A stretch of 44,748 bases of DNA from Candidatus Hydrogenedentota bacterium (lineage in GTDB: Bacteria > Hydrogenedentota > Hydrogenedentia > Hydrogenedentales > CAITNO01), in NCBI GenBank assembly GCA_012730105.1, contig JAAYBJ010000246.1:1-44748 (forward strand), written 5' to 3'. The translations under genes and the position numbers were made by a program. The notes beneath the pieces are model-generated. The model ran no database searches. It was not told the DNA's origin and was given only the letters and a program-made list of their open reading frames with translations. Each line of letters opens with the position of its first letter. The first letter of the stretch is position 1. Shown here in pieces: positions 1-29,970 of the stretch.

Positions 1-227
1 CCCTGATGTGCGTGTTCGCCCTGATGTGCGTGTTCGCCCTGATGTGCGCGTTCGCCCTGATGTGCGTGTTCGCCCTGATGTACGTGTTCGCCCTGATGTG
101 CGTGTTCGCCCTGATGTACGTGTTCGCCCTGATGTGCGTGTTCGCCCTGATATGCCTGTTCGCCCTGATGTGCGTGTTCGCCCTGATGTGCGCGTTCGCC
201 CTGATGTGCGCGTTCGCCCTGATGTGC
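1..227. repeat. 18-bp minisatellite array, truncated by window edge
   Basis: Twelve complete head-to-tail 18-bp units (consensus CCCTGATGTGCGTGTTCG) fill 1-216 and a partial unit ends near 227. Units differ by 0-3 substitutions: T/C at the thirteenth base, G/A in TGTGC/TGTAC, and one divergent unit at 145-162. There are no spacers, so this is not a CRISPR. Because 18 is a multiple of three, several frames stay open across it, including a minus-strand frame that starts at the ATG at 247-245. The unit resembles the 18-mers nested in the adjacent transposase gene (538-627). The array may extend beyond position 1. Confidence 0.95.
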
Positions 228-240
228 TGCCCGTACGTTT

Positions 241-258
241 GTTTCATTTTGTCACCTC
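241..258. repeat. Left 18-bp direct repeat flanking the RAYT gene
   Basis: Bases 241-258 match 987-1004 at 16 of 18 positions in the same orientation. This copy covers the RAYT stop codon and an ATG overlapping it (ATGA, minus strand). The other copy covers the hsdM stop and the RAYT start in the same arrangement. Confidence 0.8.
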
Positions 259-993
259 GTCAATCAGGGCTTCAAAATCGGATTCTTTGGATGGAAGGAT
301 TGCGCTGAGATTTTCACGATCAACATGCCATCGCATCGGATTGTTGATGATGTATTCACGGATGCGGTTGCAGGATGGTTCGTTGCGGATGACATGTTCG
401 TAATAATTGCGTTGCCATAATTTACCGGGGAACGGGGGCCATTGCGATTGTTTCACGCCGCGAATATAGGCGTTGGTGGTCATCGTTTTGAACCATTGCA
501 CCACACAGGATAACGACGTACCGGGTCGGGGCGGACCTGCGTGTCCGCCCGGACCTGCGTGTCCGCCCGAATTGGCGTGTTCGCCCGAATGAACGCGATC
601 GCCCGAATGAACGCGATCGCCCGGATCGTTTGGGCGGATGCCGGGGCGGACACGTAGGTCCGCCCCTACGGAATCCGCCCGTACATTCATTTCATTGTTT
701 GTTTCGGTATTGGGGCAGACACGCTGGTCTGCCCGTACCCCGGTGTTGATTACGATGAAATGAATGTGGTTGGGCATGCATACGAATGCGTCGCATTGGA
801 TGTCGGGGAATTTGTTTTCCAATTCCTCATACCAATGGACGATCATTTCGCCGGCGTCGTTCAGGTGCATTTCGTCGCCCACGATTTCGCCGAACAGGGA
901 TTCCCTGTTTTGGGTGCAAATTGTCACGAAATACGCGCCTGCCTGGGCGTAATCGTATTCCTTCAAACGGATGGAACGACGGTTGTGTTTCAT
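244..993 (-). CDS. REP-associated tyrosine transposase (RAYT, Y1_Tnp / IS200-like)
   Basis: This is a 249-aa HUH-type single-strand transposase of the RAYT group, thought to mobilise REP hairpins. The N-terminus has the family YFVTICTQNRE segment. The metal-binding HUH motif is visible in MPNHIHFIV (about residues 73-81), and the catalytic tyrosine is expected in WQRNYYEHVIRNE (about 194-206). Between them is an unusual insert of about 75 residues (roughly 84-160) with repeated GDRVHS and GGHAGP hexapeptides and the peptide GADLRVRPG. It is encoded by REP hairpins and 18-mers inside the gene. The start ATG overlaps the hsdM stop as ATGA, so translation is probably coupled. Whether the enzyme tolerates the insert is unknown. 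Family assignment is firm; activity is uncertain. Confidence 0.9.
   Translation of the reverse strand: MKHNRRSIRLKEYDYAQAGAYFVTICTQNRESLFGEIVGDEMHLNDAGEMIVHWYEELENKFPDIQCDAFVCMPNHIHFIVINTGVRADQRVCPNTETNNEMNVRADSVGADLRVRPGIRPNDPGDRVHSGDRVHSGEHANSGGHAGPGGHAGPPRPGTSLSCVVQWFKTMTTNAYIRGVKQSQWPPFPGKLWQRNYYEHVIRNEPSCNRIREYIINNPMRWHVDRENLSAILPSKESDFEALIDEVTK
529..734. repeat. In-frame REP hairpin and 18-mer cassette inside the RAYT gene
   Basis: Three REP-like hairpins lie inside the coding sequence: 529-550 (GGGCGGAC, 6-nt loop, GTCCGCCC), 643-666 (GGGGCGGAC, loop ACGTAG, GTCCGCCCC) and 713-734 (GGGCAGAC, loop ACGCTG, GTCTGCCC). Five contiguous 18-bp units occupy 538-627, running from TGCGTGTCCGCCCGGACC to AACGCGATCGCCCGGATC. 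The first unit overlaps the loop and right arm of the first hairpin, which suggests the tandem repeat grew out of a REP. The frame is kept throughout. Confidence 0.85.
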
Positions 994-1004
994 TCCGTCA
1001 CCTC
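987..1004. repeat. Right 18-bp direct repeat flanking the RAYT gene
   Basis: This is the partner of 241-258 with 16 of 18 identical bases. It spans the end of hsdM (codons for Glu-Val-Thr-Glu-stop) and the RAYT start codon. Confidence 0.8.
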
Positions 1005-3005
1005 AGCGAGCATCTTGGCGATTTCATTTTCGATTTTTTTCAGGTCGCTTTCAATTTCCTCCAGCGGCCTTGGCGGCGTGTACTGGTAGAAATACCGGTT
1101 GAAGTTAATCTCATACCCCACCTTGGTCTTGGATTCGTCCACCCAGGCATCGGGCACATGGGGCAGGACTTCCCGCTTCATGTAGTCGTTGATGGCCTCC
1201 TTGAGGGGTACGTTCTCATAATCACGCAGATCGGTATCCGGTTCGGGGTTGCCCTTGGCGTCGGTGCAGACATCGGCGGTTTCGTCGCGTTCGGACAGCG
1301 CGGCGAGGATGGCCTTCAGGAGTGATGAAGGCGGAGTGATGAGTGATGAGTTGTTGAAAGCAGCCTTAAGGTCTTTGAGGAAGGCGTCTCGGTTTGTCCA
1401 GACCTTGTTTTGGGGCATGGATTGCAGTATCTGAATGATTATCTGTTGCTGTTCCTTGCCTGCCTCGATTTCCGCCTGGGCGGCGTTGGTGTCCTTACGC
1501 TTCTTGCTGGTGGCGAGGTTGACGAAGGGATTGGCTTCTTTGAGCCGTTCGATGCGCTCTTCATTCACGGCAAAGTTGAGTTTCAGGGGACGTTCCACGG
1601 TGATGCGCTGGTAGCCGAAGTCGGTATTGTCGAATACCCGGACATATTCGCCTTGTTTCAGGGTGCCGTATAACCGGGTAATGTCGTCGCGCTGTTGTTC
1701 ACAGATTTCGTTGCGCTTATTGCCGAGGCTTTTGCGCATCTTCTTGAAGAAGCTGACGCCGTTCACCAGTTGGATTTTGCTTTTACGGCTTGCCGCTTTT
1801 CGGTTGGTGAGAATCCAGAGGTAGGTGGAGATGCCCGTATTGTAGAAGAGTTGGTCGGGCAGGGCGACAATGGCTTCGAGCCAGTCGTTCTCGATGATCC
1901 AGCGCCGGATTTCGCTTTCACCCGAACCCGCCCCGCCGGTGAACAGGGGCGATCCGTTGAACACGATGGCGAGGCGCGTGCCGCCTTCCTTTTGCGGCTT
2001 CATCTTGCTGATCATGTGCAGCAGGAACAGGAGCGAACCGTCGTTGATGCGGGGCAGCCCGGCGCCGAACCTGCCGCCGAAGCCCTGTTCCTCGTGTTCG
2101 CGCCTGACCACGGCCTCTTCCGGTTTCCACTCGACGCCGAAGGGCGGATTGGCGAGCATGTAGTCGAAGTATTTCCCGGCGAAATGGTCGTCTGTAAGGC
2201 TGTCGCCAAAGGCGATATGGTCAATGTTCTGACCCTTGATCATCATGTCCGAACCGCAGATGGCATAGGACTGGTCGTTATAGTCCTGGCCGAAGACTTC
2301 GAGGCGGGCGTCCGGGTTCAGGGCGCGCAGGTATTCTTCCGATACGGACAACATGCCGCCGGTGCCGCTGGTGGGGTCGAAGAGGGTCTTCACAATGCCG
2401 GGTGTGCGCAGGGTATCGTCATCGGGTGCGAAAATGAGGTCCACCATGAGGCGGATGACTTCGCGGGGCGTGAAATGGTCCCCGGCCTCTTCGTTCGACG
2501 CTTCGTTGAATTTACGGATGAGCTCCTCGAAGATGTAGCCCATTTCGATGTTCGAGACCGTGTCCGGGTGCAGGTCAATCTCGCAGAATTTCGAGACCAC
2601 CAGGTAGAGCCGGTCCGCCTTCTCCAGTTTCGCGATCTGTTCCTCGAAGGCGAAGTGTTCGATGATTTCCAGGGCACGGGCTGAAAAGCCCTTGATGTAG
2701 TTGACCAGGTTGGCGGCGATATTGTCCGGGTCGCCCTTGAGTTTATCGAAGGTATACAGGCTGGTGTTGTAGAAGTCATGGCCTGACGCCTGTTTCAGTT
2801 TCGCGTCAAGCACCCCCGCGCCCTTCTCGCTCCACTTTTCCGCCGCCTGGAGCACCTTGTCCTTGTTCGGCTCCAACACACAGTCCAGCCGCCGCAGCAC
2901 CGTCAGGGGCAGCATGACATCCTTGTACTGGTTCGGCCGGTAGGGCCCGCGCAGCAGGTCCGCCACGGACCAGATAAAACTGACTTTCTCACCAAAATTA
3001 TTCAT
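990..3005 (-). CDS. hsdM: Type I restriction-modification DNA methyltransferase subunit (HsdM)
   Basis: This is an adenine-N6 methyltransferase subunit of a type I restriction-modification system (SAM-dependent, cytoplasmic). I place the start at the ATG at 3005, giving 671 aa, because the family begins near NNFGEKVSFIWSVADLLRG. The frame stays open a further 38 codons upstream, but that stretch looks non-homologous. The N-terminal helical HsdM domain is followed by FTPREVIRLMV (about 178-188), the SAM-binding motif FDPTSGTGG (about 209-217) and the catalytic NPPF motif (about 286-289). A C-terminal helical region ends the protein. No hsdS or hsdR is in the window: the gene upstream is a secreted GxGYxYP protein, and a RAYT occupies the downstream position where hsdS often starts. 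The partners may lie beyond the left edge or be lost. Confidence 0.93.
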   Translation of the reverse strand: MNNFGEKVSFIWSVADLLRGPYRPNQYKDVMLPLTVLRRLDCVLEPNKDKVLQAAEKWSEKGAGVLDAKLKQASGHDFYNTSLYTFDKLKGDPDNIAANLVNYIKGFSARALEIIEHFAFEEQIAKLEKADRLYLVVSKFCEIDLHPDTVSNIEMGYIFEELIRKFNEASNEEAGDHFTPREVIRLMVDLIFAPDDDTLRTPGIVKTLFDPTSGTGGMLSVSEEYLRALNPDARLEVFGQDYNDQSYAICGSDMMIKGQNIDHIAFGDSLTDDHFAGKYFDYMLANPPFGVEWKPEEAVVRREHEEQGFGGRFGAGLPRINDGSLLFLLHMISKMKPQKEGGTRLAIVFNGSPLFTGGAGSGESEIRRWIIENDWLEAIVALPDQLFYNTGISTYLWILTNRKAASRKSKIQLVNGVSFFKKMRKSLGNKRNEICEQQRDDITRLYGTLKQGEYVRVFDNTDFGYQRITVERPLKLNFAVNEERIERLKEANPFVNLATSKKRKDTNAAQAEIEAGKEQQQIIIQILQSMPQNKVWTNRDAFLKDLKAAFNNSSLITPPSSLLKAILAALSERDETADVCTDAKGNPEPDTDLRDYENVPLKEAINDYMKREVLPHVPDAWVDESKTKVGYEINFNRYFYQYTPPRPLEEIESDLKKIENEIAKMLAEVTE

Positions 3006-3262
3006 AAGGAGGGTTTGCTTTCCTGATGGGTTGACCCGTTCCCGTTTCCGCTCGTTACCAAAATTGAATTTGGGAACGCCAGTGCGCTTGAAGTTTTCAC
3101 TTCCTCTTTGCGGCGCCATTTCAAACGGATTGGTTTATTATGCTACCTCTGGTGATGAGGTTCAAGTCTGCGTGGGAGGGGCGCGTCACTGCAGTGAAGA
3201 CGCACCAACGGACCCCGGTTTCTGCCGCTGTAGAATGGGCACGGTGCGTTTATGCAGTTTGT

Positions 3263-5050
3263 TTAGTGACCCTCAATGGTCTTTGACGCTTCCAGAGCGA
3301 GTTGAACAGCAGTGTCAGCGCTGACCAGGCGAACGTGTTCCGGGAGTATGGTCACCAGTTCCATGACGGAATTCTGGAGGTTGAGTCCGCCGTCGCTGGT
3401 CATGTAAATGCCCGTAACGGTTCCCCGCGGATAGGCACCCAGTTCTTGGGCCATCTTTTCAGGACTCAGGTAAAATTCTTTATCCAGGGGGCCGCCATTA
3501 TCATGAACTCCCCGCCATTCCCTGGGGCGGAACAGTACGACCTTCCCGCCGTCCTGACCGGTAATCACTTTGAAGAACTGATTGGGGTTCCACGTGCCTG
3601 TTGGGAGCATATAGGGCACGTTAACGGGGAACACCCCCTGAATGGCCCCGTCCATTGTTGCGTACTTGGGCAGGAACACCTCTTCCGCGTATTGCCATGT
3701 GTCAAAAAACTCCCAATGAACCGTGCTATGGGTGCCGAACAGGCGGGCATCGTCTTCCGTGGCCGCGACAAACTCGTCTTGCATGGTTGTTTCTTCCAGC
3801 GATGCGGGATATGCATACAAGTGGCCGCTGGGCGGCAGCATGAAGTAATCTTTTCCTGTTTCATAACTCATCGTGTAGTACCACTTAAGTACATCCGGTG
3901 CAAGGCGGGCGAGGTGCGGCGAAATGGACCAGGTAAGGGGCGGGCAGAACGCATCTCCCTTGTTGCAGGCCTCGGCCCGCTGCCGGATCCACTGTGCCCG
4001 TGTTCCCATCATAAAATTGACATTATCCCCGTCCCCCACAATAAAGGCGACATAGGTCTTGGAGGGATCATAGTCGACATCCTCCAGCGCGTTTTGCGGT
4101 ATCTCGTCCGGATTGGTAATCGGTGCTCGTCGTGTGGAGAAAAAGGAAAGGTTATTCACTTCGGTCGGAATAGCGCCCATGTTTCGTGACTCCCCACATA
4201 GGGTCTGCGCCTCGAAAAGGTATCCCCCGAATACCAGCCAATAATTTGCGTAGCCATACACCCCGATGGGTTTGGGCCAGGGGTTTGCGCTGACGATCTC
4301 ATTCAGAAGAGCGCCCTGTTCTGTGTTCGTGATGCATCCGTTCACCAGAAACATGACGAACAGCTTTTTAGAAAACACGAAATCAATCAGGGAAGATGCC
4401 ATGCTCCCGTTAAGTTCAGGGTTCCAGACTCTTCTGCCGTCTCTGCTATAGCCCGGGTTCAGCATGGCGAGTCCCGTGGTCTCGTTTACATAGTGCTCAT
4501 ACACGTACTTTGTCGCGAGATAAGGCGTATCGTGGTCCGCGAATACTGCCGTTGCGTCGAATACCAGGTCGCCCCATTGCATATCCATTTCCTCGGCGAT
4601 GGGTACGGCTTCGAGGACCGCGCTGACTGTGAGGATATTGGGAAGCAAGGTCTGCTGCTTCTTGTAGGAGTAACGCACATATCGGGGGAATTTCGTCCGA
4701 CAGACCTCCAGAAACTGATCTGCAGTTAGCAGGGCATCCGGCTGTAACGTGAGATCCTCCATCCATTGCGCGTCCTTTTTATTCATGCGCGTGAAAACGG
4801 ACCCGCCATGCTTGCGATTGCACAACCCGGCACATGCCTGCACTGCGATTGTTACCGCCGGGTCGGTCGCGGGATCAATGTCCACCACCCGCAATAACTG
4901 CCCTTCATCGGGCGGGGGAGCCGTGTCAGCACGTTTTTGTGTGACGTCCGACGGCGGTGCTGCCATCGCTTCTGCAAATACAGCATCGGAAGAAAGTATT
5001 ATCCCAAGGGCAAACGATACCGCTATCAACGTGTGTTTTGTTAAGGTCAT
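3263..5050 (-). CDS. Secreted GxGYxYP-family protein (putative glycoside hydrolase-like)
   Basis: About 595 aa from the ATG at 5050, chosen because it gives a signal peptide (TLTKHTLIAVSFALGIILSS...FAEA) and has a GTAGGA-like ribosome site upstream. The frame is open 35 codons further upstream without a signal sequence. The body matches the GxGYxYP family: a FIVGDGDNVNFM segment (about residue 340) and the region KDYFMLPPSGHLYAYP (about 405-420). The name-giving motif here reads GHLYAYP, so the second glycine is Leu. The family is secreted and suspected to act on polysaccharides, but no reaction is established to my knowledge. It lies upstream of hsdM on the same strand with about 260 bp between them, so it is probably a separate transcription unit. 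Confidence 0.75.
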   Translation of the reverse strand: MTLTKHTLIAVSFALGIILSSDAVFAEAMAAPPSDVTQKRADTAPPPDEGQLLRVVDIDPATDPAVTIAVQACAGLCNRKHGGSVFTRMNKKDAQWMEDLTLQPDALLTADQFLEVCRTKFPRYVRYSYKKQQTLLPNILTVSAVLEAVPIAEEMDMQWGDLVFDATAVFADHDTPYLATKYVYEHYVNETTGLAMLNPGYSRDGRRVWNPELNGSMASSLIDFVFSKKLFVMFLVNGCITNTEQGALLNEIVSANPWPKPIGVYGYANYWLVFGGYLFEAQTLCGESRNMGAIPTEVNNLSFFSTRRAPITNPDEIPQNALEDVDYDPSKTYVAFIVGDGDNVNFMMGTRAQWIRQRAEACNKGDAFCPPLTWSISPHLARLAPDVLKWYYTMSYETGKDYFMLPPSGHLYAYPASLEETTMQDEFVAATEDDARLFGTHSTVHWEFFDTWQYAEEVFLPKYATMDGAIQGVFPVNVPYMLPTGTWNPNQFFKVITGQDGGKVVLFRPREWRGVHDNGGPLDKEFYLSPEKMAQELGAYPRGTVTGIYMTSDGGLNLQNSVMELVTILPEHVRLVSADTAVQLALEASKTIEGH

Positions 5051-5262
5051 CAGTGTTGTTCCTACGGGTTCATAATGTTTCAAGTTGAGCGGCATTTTCT
5101 TCATTCCCATCCAAGGAGCGAAGCGCAGCCGGGGGCCTGCGTCATAATACGGCAACGCACCTTAATTCGCTCTGTATGCCCCTGGCCAGCCTGGAAGCGC
5201 ACCGTTTGCAAAACCCATCCCGTTTATCGAGCCGTTCTGGCATGCGAGTTCCGTCCAGGGAC

Positions 5263-5354
5263 GTCATTGACCGCACTGACCTTATTGACATGCATCGTGC
5301 CAAATTGCGCCTGTATTTGTCAGTGGAGTCAATCCGGTCAATCCGGTCATTAAC
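5263..5354. repeat. Nonamer repeat pair in inverted orientation
   Basis: This lies in the 312-bp gap 5051-5362, where nothing else was recognised. The left arm (5263-5289) is three 9-bp units, GTCATTGAC, CGCACTGAC, CTTATTGAC. The right arm (5319-5354) is four units in the opposite sense, GTCAGTGGA, GTCAATCCG, GTCAATCCG, GTCATTAAC. The outer part can pair (5263-5280 with 5319-5336) to give a hairpin. Related units occur at 11424-11450, 14748-14907 and 29935-29970. Bases 5219-5304 also resemble 11381-11464. Confidence 0.75.
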
Positions 5355-5362
5355 TTATTCTG

Positions 5363-6913
5363 TTAATCTGCCGACGCTGGCGGATAGACACCCAAATCAT
5401 GAGTTTGAACGGAGAAGGTATGCTCACTTCTCGGCTTTCGTTTCCAATCCAAGGTCCGATTGGGTTCGGCCATCATCCAGTCCGGGCGTTTTGGAACCTC
5501 GGGGAATTGGGGTACCGCGTAGGATTCTTCGCGAAGATGTATCAGAAGCGGCCTGTTGGGTTCCACTTCCAGGAACACTTCGGCGCCCTCGTGCGGGAAA
5601 AACCGGAGGTAAATCGTCCAGGAGTCCTTGCCACCGGCAAACACATGGTCCAGCATACGCGCCTCAAACACCTGCAGGTGCTCTATCGTGAGGGTGAGTC
5701 GTTGCGCATCTCGGGGTGAATCCAAAAACAGTTTCAATTTTCTGCGCCCCCCTTCGATGACATCGTCCAGCACCTCCAGCCGCGTCGGTCCCGAAGGATC
5801 GAAGGGCGCAGGCGCCTTGAAACACGCTTCCTCCATACCCGGGAAAAATTCATCTATCCTGGCGCGCACCGGGTCGGGACCAAAAAAGTTCTCCGTATAG
5901 GCATCCAGTTCCGCGTCCGTACTCAGCCACCATGCCTTGCCACGGTCATGGTCCATTCCGTAAGAAAGACAGTTCTGCTTGGGGCAGTCCGCGCTGGGAA
6001 AGTTGGTAAGAAATGCGGCAAGGAAAACCAGTACTCCAAACGCAAACACAGCGCCGAAAATCTTAAACGGCCTGCCCTCAACAGCGGTGATGAATTGAGG
6101 TATCGCCAAACTGGCCAGCAGCATAAGCAACGCTGCCAGAACAGGCATGCCGAGAAGCGTGATGCTATACGCCATGGCAACAAGCAGTGGAAATATCACC
6201 ACAAGGGGTGGCAGGACCAGCAGTGCGGCAAGCAGGGTTGCGGGAGGCGCCAGTTTCTCGTTTGTGTGGCATGTCGCGAGCACCATCAACGCCAAACTGC
6301 CGCATACCAGCCCGAGCAGGGGCGCATGCGCCCCCCCGGGCACATACTGCTGCATCAAAACGAGCAGCACCGCCCAGAGGATAAGGCCGGCGCCCAGAAA
6401 ACTCTGCGGGGCAAGTGATTTGCGCAGCCATGCCGCTGTTCCCAAATAGAGCGACAACGCCACTGCGCACCCGCCCAGACAATACCAGTTGTTACTATAA
6501 AGCGCGTGTTCGCGAAACAGGTAGAGCAACCCGAACACGATAATACCCAGCAGGGTTCCCACCACGACGGCAATGCCCACCATTACGAGGAGCGCACCCA
6601 GAAGTTGCCGTAGGGTTACATAGTTCCGGTAAAGCGCCCAGGCCAGGCAACACAAAAAGAGCGGTAATGCCAGACCCGCCAATAAAGGCCCGTAATCTTG
6701 GGGATAGACAATCATATGCGAGCCGAGTGTGTTGAAGTAGGTCGCATTGGGCGCCTCACAGAGGTAAAGCGGCAGGTTGCCCAGGTGTTTCGCCAGGCCC
6801 AACGTATGGGCCCCCATGTGCTGTACGCTTGCCAGGCTAACAGTTTCAGGATTATCCATCTTTGTATGGTAATGACAGAAATCATCCGTAAAGGCAATAT
6901 TATAGCCAGGCAC
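5363..6913 (-). CDS. M28 peptidase, C-terminal membrane part (split by frameshift)
   Basis: This is the downstream piece of an ERMP1-like M28 peptidase, readable from about 6913. It opens with PGYNIAFTDDF and HYHTKMDNPETVS, which is the end of the M28 catalytic domain and carries the last zinc-ligand histidine. After that come roughly eight hydrophobic segments (for example LLAGLALPLFLCCLAWAL and LLGALLVMVGIAVVVGTLLG) and a soluble C-terminal beta-rich region of about 190 residues. The GTG at its 5' end lies inside the conserved catalytic domain, so it is not a believable independent start. It overlaps the upstream piece by about 200 bp in another frame. Together the pieces would make one protein of about 790 aa. 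Confidence 0.8.
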   Translation of the reverse strand: MPGYNIAFTDDFCHYHTKMDNPETVSLASVQHMGAHTLGLAKHLGNLPLYLCEAPNATYFNTLGSHMIVYPQDYGPLLAGLALPLFLCCLAWALYRNYVTLRQLLGALLVMVGIAVVVGTLLGIIVFGLLYLFREHALYSNNWYCLGGCAVALSLYLGTAAWLRKSLAPQSFLGAGLILWAVLLVLMQQYVPGGAHAPLLGLVCGSLALMVLATCHTNEKLAPPATLLAALLVLPPLVVIFPLLVAMAYSITLLGMPVLAALLMLLASLAIPQFITAVEGRPFKIFGAVFAFGVLVFLAAFLTNFPSADCPKQNCLSYGMDHDRGKAWWLSTDAELDAYTENFFGPDPVRARIDEFFPGMEEACFKAPAPFDPSGPTRLEVLDDVIEGGRRKLKLFLDSPRDAQRLTLTIEHLQVFEARMLDHVFAGGKDSWTIYLRFFPHEGAEVFLEVEPNRPLLIHLREESYAVPQFPEVPKRPDWMMAEPNRTLDWKRKPRSEHTFSVQTHDLGVYPPASAD

Positions 6914-7740
6914 CGTTTTTTATAACGCGTTGAGAAGTCGCTTCCGAAGGGCATGGCTTCATAGACATCGAACATGATGGAAGAGGCCCGCGGTTGCACC
7001 CCGGCACGCGCCAGTTCCTGTATCAGCCATCCATTCTGTTGCGATGTTTCGAACATATGCACCGGCCCCGACGTACCCCGGGCCTCCAGGCCAAGCATAA
7101 CGCCAATCTCCTCAAACCAGGGATGCTGTGTGACAGCCCATGCGCCCAACGTTCCTTCCTCTTCCATATCCGTAAAACAGAGGATGATATCGTTCATCAA
7201 CGGCGGACCGGCTTTCAACGCGCGTGCAGTTTCAAGCATGGCGGCGCAGGCACTGACGTCATCCGCCGCCCCCGGACCGTAAGGGGTGGAATCAAAGTGG
7301 CCATCAATGGCGAAGGCTTTGGTGGGGGCGGTCCCCGGGATGCGGGCAAGCACAGCGCGTGTAATCGTGAGATCATGGTTGCCTGCCCTCAGCAGGGTAT
7401 GAACAACGTACGCTATGCCCATTGCGTCCAGTTGCGAACAGATATAGGCGAAGACTTCCTCGTTCTCTTTACTGCCGGCGGGATGCACCTCTTGCGCCAT
7501 CACCTCAATATGCTTCAAGGCGCGCTCGGCGGAAAAGACCTCCGCTGGTGCACTGCTGGACAGGGGGCGCGGGGGCAGCGAAAGCCAATGTGCCAACCCG
7601 GCCATGAACACCAGCATCACCACGGAGGCAATAGCAAAACGCCGGCGTGTCAGGAAAGAGGCGTTCTCTTTAGCGACGTCTTTCGGGGCTGCGGGTGAAA
7701 CGATTGAGGCTGAATTCTGTTCTGGAAGATAAGCGGACAT
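6712..7740 (-). CDS. M28 peptidase, N-terminal catalytic part (ERMP1-like, frameshifted)
   Basis: This is the upstream piece of a membrane-anchored zinc aminopeptidase resembling the ER metallopeptidase ERMP1. A membrane segment lies near residues 35-54 (RFAIASVVMLVFMAGLAHWL). Catalytic-domain motifs are GHFDSTPYGPGAADD (His148, Asp150, Asp160/161), DMEEEG (Glu193-195) and LGLEARG (Glu219). Family similarity continues to MPFGSDFSTRYKK (about 263-275) and then stops. The last 68 or so residues look like out-of-frame translation. The break is at a six-A run (minus strand; 6916-6921 on the plus strand). One additional A, or a -1 slip there, joins this frame to PGYNIAFTDDF. Neither half carries the full metal site. 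The start ATG has an AAAGGAG about 14 nt upstream. Confidence 0.85.
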   Translation of the reverse strand: MSAYLPEQNSASIVSPAAPKDVAKENASFLTRRRFAIASVVMLVFMAGLAHWLSLPPRPLSSSAPAEVFSAERALKHIEVMAQEVHPAGSKENEEVFAYICSQLDAMGIAYVVHTLLRAGNHDLTITRAVLARIPGTAPTKAFAIDGHFDSTPYGPGAADDVSACAAMLETARALKAGPPLMNDIILCFTDMEEEGTLGAWAVTQHPWFEEIGVMLGLEARGTSGPVHMFETSQQNGWLIQELARAGVQPRASSIMFDVYEAMPFGSDFSTRYKKRCLAIILPLRMISVITIQRWIILKLLAWQAYSTWGPIRWAWRNTWATCRFTSVRRPMRPTSTHSARI

Positions 7741-7912
7741 ACGAGAAACGATGGCTCCTTTCTGCGAAGCGTTGGAAAGATACAGCGGTGTACCGCCGTA
7801 TCATTGGTGGCGCCCACAAGTGGGACCGTCTAATCCGAAGAACATGGGTATGTTCGACTTTTTTCTTCTTTAAAATGCAGGTTCCAGCTACCACCACGAG
7901 GTTCAACAAGAA

Positions 7913-25496: not shown

Positions 25497-25535
25497 TTAC
25501 TCAATATGTTGAGTAATTTTACTCAATATATTGAG
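25497..25535 (-). promoter_or_regulatory. Tandem palindromic operators upstream of the AAA/DUF4143 gene
   Basis: TTACTCAA-TATG-TTGAGTAA (25497-25516) and CTCAATATATTGAG (25522-25535) are two near-identical palindromes whose centres lie 22 bp apart, about two helical turns. The nearer is 19 nt from the start codon and just upstream of the ribosome site. This layout suits a dimeric repressor binding both sites on the same face. Confidence 0.7.
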
Positions 25536-25661
25536 ATAATTCAAGGCAAGAAAAACCCCTGAGCGTATAGTATTGAAGTTAAACATCATAAGTGGAACAA
25601 AACATCAGGTCTTACGTCCCATATTCCGTGTTCTTCCGTGAATTCCGTGGTTGGCATCGTC

Positions 25662-29934: not shown

Positions 29935-29970
29935 GTCCGATCGGTCTGATCGGTCTGATCCGTCCGATAG
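29935..29970. repeat. Nonamer repeat, four units
   Basis: GTCCGATCG, GTCTGATCG, GTCTGATCC, GTCCGATAG fill the 47-bp space between two convergent genes. It has the same 9-bp period and GTC-x-x-AT core as the repeats at 5263-5354, 11424-11450 and 14748-14907. Confidence 0.65.

What the first reader, a model, noticed from the sequence alone, without database searches (positions are those of the whole stretch)
1..735. An 18-bp minisatellite seems to have been seeded by a REP hairpin, and a sister array lies inside the transposase gene
The 12.6-copy array at 1-227 and the five 18-mers at 538-627 share the core TGCGTGTTCGCCC / TGCGTGTCCGCCC. The first nested unit overlaps the loop and right arm of a REP hairpin at 529-550. 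The unit length (18 = 6 codons) keeps the transposase frame open, so REP expansion has been tolerated inside its own mobilising enzyme. RAYT genes are known to sit beside REPs, but growth of REP halves into a tandem array, inside the gene and next to it, would be a distinct behaviour.
Basis: partly seen in the sequence, partly recalled or inferred. Interest (0 to 1): 0.75.

Follow-up and report, generated by a model that had tools for sequence, protein, structure and literature searches.

The report
REP hairpin halves expanded in tandem
A short DNA hairpin that belongs to a tamed bacterial transposase has had one of its halves copied over and over, both inside the transposase's own gene and beside it; hairpins inside this gene were already known, but their one-sided growth into long tandem arrays in unrelated bacteria seems to be undescribed.

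Summary
The 18-bp array at 1-227 (12.6 copies) and the shorter 18-bp array at about 533-622 inside a REP-associated Y1 transposase (RAYT) gene both stand. The 1-227 array is cut by the contig end. A paralogous RAYT on C233 has the same architecture with a different REP and a different 18-mer. So REP-seeded growth happened at least three times in this genome. It is growth of REP halves, not copying of one array: the REP-derived part of the unit is shared, the spacer is not. Similar arrays occur in many phyla, mostly growing away from the GTAG foot (38:2), and are enriched in and near RAYT genes. REPs inside RAYT genes, with short repeats, are already published for TnpAREP subclass 2.4 (PMC6006769), which this protein fits. 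The polar half-REP arrays, including the intergenic one, are the part I did not find described. The likely mechanism is hairpin-promoted slippage, tolerated in a disordered loop and filtered for reading frame; a role of the transposase in array growth is possible but unproven. New variant of a known kind.

The parts
1..227 (+). Intergenic minisatellite, unit TGATGTGCGTGTTCGCCC, 12 whole copies plus a partial one; truncated by the contig start and continued on C231:1-207 (minus strand)
   Evidence: TRF; pattern hits only on C209 and C231; C231 sequence
228..237 (+). TGCCCGTACG, resembles the untagged end of the local REPs; right border of the array
   Evidence: sequence read, compare GTCTGCCCGTAC at 727-738
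244..993 (-). RAYT / TnpAREP gene, 249 aa, subclass 2.4 type; ATGA overlap with the end of hsdM
   Evidence: ORF; Pfam Y1_Tnp; alignment A1 with invariant motifs; best fold match 4ER8
760..777 (-). codons for MPNHIH, the HuH motif (residues 73-78)
   Evidence: M, P, N, H, H invariant in 13 relatives
520..741 (-). variable in-gene insert made of REPs and the nested array; residues 89-154 predicted disordered
   Evidence: alignment; pLDDT below 50; homology to the G005 orthologue stops at window 740
525..550 (+). REP seeding the nested array: foot GTCG (variant of GTAG) plus perfect 8-bp stem hairpin at 529-550
551..622 (+). four further 18-bp half-REP units (five counting the REP's own right part from 533)
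644..669 (-). second REP, inverted: GTAGGGGCGGACCTACGTGTCCGCCC
713..738 (-). third REP: GTACGGGCAGACCAGCGTGTCTGCCC
352..354 (-). codon of the presumed catalytic tyrosine (Y214 in YIINNP)
   Evidence: invariant in alignment; motif as given for subclass 2.4

Best explanation
This is a REPtron: a RAYT (TnpAREP subclass 2.4) gene with its GTAG-footed REPs flanking it and lodged in the gene. Three REPs in this genome grew one-sided tandem arrays. In each, the foot and left arm (or its base) stay single, while the loop's 3' side, the right arm and a few neighbouring bases (18 bp together) were duplicated in tandem and then expanded. Shown: the anatomy, the recurrence in unrelated sequences, the bias away from the foot, the concentration at RAYT genes, and unit lengths that are multiples of three within genes. 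Inferred: the first duplication and later length changes arise by slipped-strand misalignment helped by the hairpin on single-stranded DNA; the one retained left arm can pair with any right arm, so whole units are gained or lost. Also inferred: within the gene the array survives because it codes for a disordered loop after the HuH motif and because frame-breaking steps are removed by selection.
For: Intergenic array starts at a complete REP on C231. Paralogue on C233 has GTAGGGGCACCCCCCTGTGGGTGCCC followed by AACCCCCCGTGGGTGCCC units. A whole-genome search for four GCCC at 18-bp steps finds only these three arrays plus one unrelated low-complexity stretch on C134. All five REPs of the C209 type, and both exact matches of the C233 type, lie at RAYT genes. 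Half-REP arrays are found in many phyla; 15 of 20 such genomes have this RAYT, against 99 of 395 sampled in one class at a stricter cut-off and 9 of 68 in the own phylum. Half-array loci carry a RAYT in 9 of 50, full-REP-pair loci in 0 of 69, p = 2.6e-4; foot on the far side 38, on the array side 2. Among 58 RAYT inserts, 35 hold a tandem repeat of period 9 or more in 10.3 kb, against 9 in the other 28.9 kb; 34 of 35 periods are multiples of three. Insert residues 89-154 have pLDDT below 50. dN/dS about 0.14 over 72 codons.
Against: No length variation between strains could be seen, so slippage itself is not observed. The microhomology expected for a first slip is 3 nt in all three own arrays by eye, but weak in the wider set (mean 0.9 against 0.36 by chance, only 8 scorable cases). 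Plain slippage does not explain why growth avoids the foot side; left-half arrays do exist (L266, L270). The C209-C231 join is inferred from the shared array and gene order, not from a spanning read.
Confidence: 0.66

Rival explanations
1. The transposase itself builds the arrays. RAYT binds the foot and hairpin on single-stranded DNA, cleaves at a C|T step downstream, and joins strands so that the distal half of the REP is added again.
For: Bias away from the foot (38:2); arrays enriched at RAYT genes; TnpAREP cleaves 5' or 3' of REP at C|T and joins strands in vitro (PMC8266576); units of the intergenic array begin at CCC|T.
Against: Many arrays have no RAYT of this type within the fetched DNA (41 of 50 loci). 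The base after the right arm is T in 19 of 40 arrays against 16 of 44 solitary REPs, not a clear excess. Left-half arrays exist.
Confidence: 0.15
2. The arrays do a job: tuning hsdM-hsdS expression by RNA structure between the genes, or tuning the RAYT loop by its length.
For: The array lies between RAYT and hsdS in a type I restriction operon; hypervariable inserts with up to 32 copies in one RAYT.
Against: Insert sequence, unit and length are not conserved between relatives; the insert is predicted disordered; other RAYTs of the family have short inserts.
Confidence: 0.1
3. The two window arrays are sister copies, one made from the other by gene conversion or transposition.
For: Shared 13-nt core and 18-bp length.
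Against: Spacer parts match in only 2-3 of 5 positions while the REP part matches 12 of 13 in the best units; each array sits next to its own REP with matching arm type; C233 shows the same form with unrelated sequence.
Confidence: 0.05
4. An ordinary minisatellite whose likeness to the REP is chance.
For: Minisatellites are common; one non-REP period-18 stretch exists on C134.
Against: A REP at the array border in all three cases; recurrence across phyla with different REP sequences.
Confidence: 0.04

Closest known systems
TnpAREP subclass 2.4 (Bertels group 4) REPtrons, Quentin et al. 2018, PMC6006769
   Same: Protein motifs, variable insertion between HuH and Y, GTAG-footed long and double-foot REPs, REPs inserted in frame within the tnpAREP gene, short repeats noted in the insert
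   Different: The text read does not describe REP halves growing into tandem arrays, their bias away from the foot, or an array beside the gene (supplementary figures S6 and S10 could not be read)
REPINs and REP/REPIN tandem clusters of Pseudomonas fluorescens, Bertels and Rainey 2011, PMC3116915
   Same: GTAG-tagged hairpins in inverted pairs, occasional tandem clusters, RAYT link
   Different: There whole REPs or REPINs with flanks are repeated at about 70-180 bp spacing; here only a half hairpin, and REPs are few and confined to RAYT loci
GTAG REPs, Di Nocera et al. 2013, PMC3733652
   Same: GTAG foot, stem-loop, some elements inside genes
   Different: Tandem reiteration described for whole singletons or dimers with flanks, not for halves
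BIMEs of enterobacteria
   Same: REP-based composite repeats
   Different: Alternating whole REPs, not half-REP units

Membership tests
TnpAREP subclass 2.4 | HuH motif NH[IFV]H | tested here: met
   NHIH at residues 75-78, invariant N, H, H in 13 relatives
TnpAREP subclass 2.4 | WQ motif and YIxNNP tyrosine motif | tested here: met
   W193-Q194 and YIINNP 214-219; motif list
TnpAREP subclass 2.4 | variable insertion between HuH (beta3) and alphaC | tested here: met
   inserts of 16 to 197 aa in 58 relatives; strand 76-83, then disorder, then helix 161-181
TnpAREP subclass 2.4 | REPs within the gene in frame, and flanking it | tested here: met
   525-550, 644-669, 713-738 in gene; C231:200-225 beside it
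TnpAREP subclass 2.4 | placement by phylogeny among the published subclasses | not tested
   published sequence set not at hand
TnpAREP subclass 2.4 | cleavage of its own REP as single strand | not testable with these tools
   needs purified protein
RAYT fold | structural likeness to E. coli TnpAREP | tested here: met
   best PDB match 4ER8, E 1.5e-5, prob 1.00; then IS200/IS605 transposases
NCBIfam NF047646 REP_Tyr_transpos equivalog | score above curated cut-off 80 | tested here: not met
   62.9 bits; the long insert splits the match; I do not file it under this model
REPIN / dispersed REP family | many copies dispersed through the genome | tested here: not met
   five copies, all at this RAYT locus

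The most novel reading that the evidence does not exclude
RAYTs of this subclass actively lengthen DNA at their REPs: foot-anchored cleavage and strand transfer repeatedly add the distal half of the hairpin, making directional arrays, including in the enzyme's own gene, so that the enzyme edits the length of its own loop.
Probability: 0.12. Interest if true: 0.85.

Novelty: new variant of a known kind. Interest (0 to 1): 0.48.

Why it matters
How REPs multiply is an open question. A one-sided array that keeps foot and left arm single is a record of what happened to the hairpin, and it can be tested in a laboratory strain. It also gives many natural examples of a tandem array born from a palindrome, with the seed still readable, and of a mobile element wearing its own repeats in its coding sequence without losing conserved motifs.

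Tried and rejected
No solved structure is found by sequence alone; fold comparison was needed. Microhomology as a general rule for the first duplication: weak. T as the base after the right arm, which would point to C|T cleavage: no clear excess. Strict polarity: rejected, since L266 and L270 hold left-half repeats. Frame as the reason for 18 bp: rejected, as the intergenic array has the same period and others differ. Paper searches for half-REP tandem arrays gave nothing relevant. The search centre could not be given as a locus.

Full report
Observation. The array at 1-227 (period 18, 12.6 copies) and the nested array in the ORF 244-993 (-) are both there and far beyond chance. The nested array is best described as five units at 533-622, the first being the last 18 nt of the perfect REP hairpin at 529-550, which is preceded by GTCG, a one-base variant of the GTAG foot. 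Later units are diverged: three keep 12 of 13 core positions, two keep 9.

The missing end. The window is one whole contig, C209 of genome G000, so the array at 1-227 is cut by the contig end. Its unit occurs in the genome only on C209 and at the start of C231. Read on the matching strand, C231 gives GTAGGGGCGAACCTGCGTGTTCGCCC followed directly by TGATGTACGTGTTCGCCC-type units up to the contig end. So the array starts at the right arm of a complete GTAG-footed REP. The order of unit variants on the two contigs does not overlap by eye, so the array has at least about 23 units; its full length is unknown. C231 carries hsdS (Pfam Methylase_S) and, by my reading of the ORFs, an ImmA/IrrE-like gene and hsdR; the window carries hsdM. 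The order is hsdM, RAYT, array, hsdS. The join is inferred.

The paralogue. The nearest RAYT paralogue in the genome (C233) holds, at the same place in the gene, GTAGGGGCACCCCCCTGTGGGTGCCC followed by four AACCCCCCGTGGGTGCCC-type units and later an inverted REP. Sequence and stem differ from the window's REP, yet the design is the same. A genome-wide search for four GCCC at 18-bp steps finds these three arrays and one unrelated low-complexity stretch on C134. REPs of the C209 type occur five times, all at this RAYT locus. REPs of the C233 type occur twice, both in that RAYT gene, and the only looser match lies downstream of yet another RAYT on C56. In this genome REPs of these types are not a dispersed family but stay at RAYT genes.

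Independent growth, not copying. Comparing units, the REP-derived 13 nt agree in 12 positions in the best units while the 5-nt spacers agree in 2 or 3. Each array uses the arm type of its own neighbouring REP. With the C233 case this means at least three separate expansions.

Other genomes. After removing tandem or inverted whole REPs, 50 loci show half-REP repeats, in Bacteroidota, Cyanobacteria, Chloroflexi, Proteobacteria, Oscillospiraceae, Acidobacteria and others, with periods of 12 to 42 bp and up to nine copies. A few of these are probably chance matches in GC-rich genomes without a GTAG foot. The foot lies on the side away from the array in 38 cases and on the array side in 2. Because the arms are palindromic, the scan was blind to this, so the bias is not built in. 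It is not absolute: L266 and L270 hold repeats of the left half. RAYT genes occur at 9 of the 50 half-array loci and 0 of 69 loci with whole REPs only, p = 2.6e-4; at six of the nine the array lies inside the RAYT gene. In 395 genomes of one class, 7 have a short half-array and 6 of these have this RAYT, against 93 of 388 others, p = 0.0012.

RAYT inserts. In 58 RAYTs with an insert of 16 aa or more, 35 hold a tandem repeat of period 9 or more within the insert (10.3 kb in all) against 9 in the rest of the genes (28.9 kb), and 34 of 35 periods are multiples of three. The extreme is L301 with 32 copies of 15 bp, starting at GTAGGGGCGAACCTGCGTGTTCGCCC. Residues around HuH, W and Y are invariant in the aligned relatives. 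The predicted structure of the window protein has a confident core and no order in residues 89-154; its best match among solved structures is E. coli TnpAREP bound to a REP hairpin, 4ER8. A fragment of an orthologue in G005, same family, is alike up to window position 740 and then stops at a GTAG REP; over 72 codons dN is 0.088 and dS 0.61. That copy is itself broken, so the ratio reflects past selection on both lines.

Mechanism. Shown: seed, design, recurrence, foot bias, RAYT link, multiples of three in genes. Inferred: hairpin-promoted slippage on single-stranded DNA makes the first duplication of loop, right arm and a few flanking bases, and whole units are then gained or lost; in genes, selection keeps the frame and the disordered loop tolerates length. 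Not explained by this: the bias away from the foot. RAYT cleavage and joining next to REPs, shown in vitro for other RAYTs (PMC8266576), could explain it, but a simple test (base after the arm) was not conclusive, and microhomology at the first step was weak.

What is known. Quentin et al. 2018 (PMC6006769) describe REPs inside subclass 2.4 tnpAREP genes, in frame, between HuH and Y, as a unique feature of that subclass, and mention short repeats in the insert. This window's protein meets the listed motifs. So the in-gene REP is known. What I did not find described is the half-REP array as a thing in itself: its seed at a footed hairpin, its one-sidedness, and its presence beside the gene and in other intergenic places. 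Only open-licence papers were searched and supplements could not be read.

Verdict. Observation confirmed, interpretation partly supported, new variant of a known kind.

Noticed in passing
window 990-3119 (-), 244-993 (-), and G000:C231 (L354) 387-7893: The RAYT sits within a type I restriction-modification operon between hsdM and hsdS, with an ATGA overlap to hsdM; an ImmA/IrrE-like gene (by eye) and hsdR follow.
   Followed up: partly
window 240-258 and 986-1004: A 19-nt imperfect direct repeat (17 of 19) lies at both ends of the RAYT gene, so that hsdM ends in EVTE and RAYT in EVTK; it could mark how RAYT entered the operon.
   Followed up: partly
L041 1468-1776 (genome G005): An orthologous RAYT fragment whose homology ends at a GTAG REP, as if the REP were the breakpoint.
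   Followed up: partly
L301 (genome G149): A RAYT ORF with 32 copies of a 15-bp half-REP unit in its post-HuH insert.
   Followed up: partly
L266, L270: RAYT genes with repeats of the left REP half, the exceptions to the usual direction.
   Followed up: no
L130, L160, L173, L095: Some RAYTs carry further REP-derived peptides at a second place, near the N-terminal LFG...LN stretch.
   Followed up: no
L034 1-170 (G000:C316): A 35-bp tandem repeat, 4.9 copies, near another Y1 transposase gene.
   Followed up: no
window 5328-5349, 25497-25541, 29935-29968: Small tandem repeats elsewhere in the window without REP likeness at a glance.
   Followed up: no
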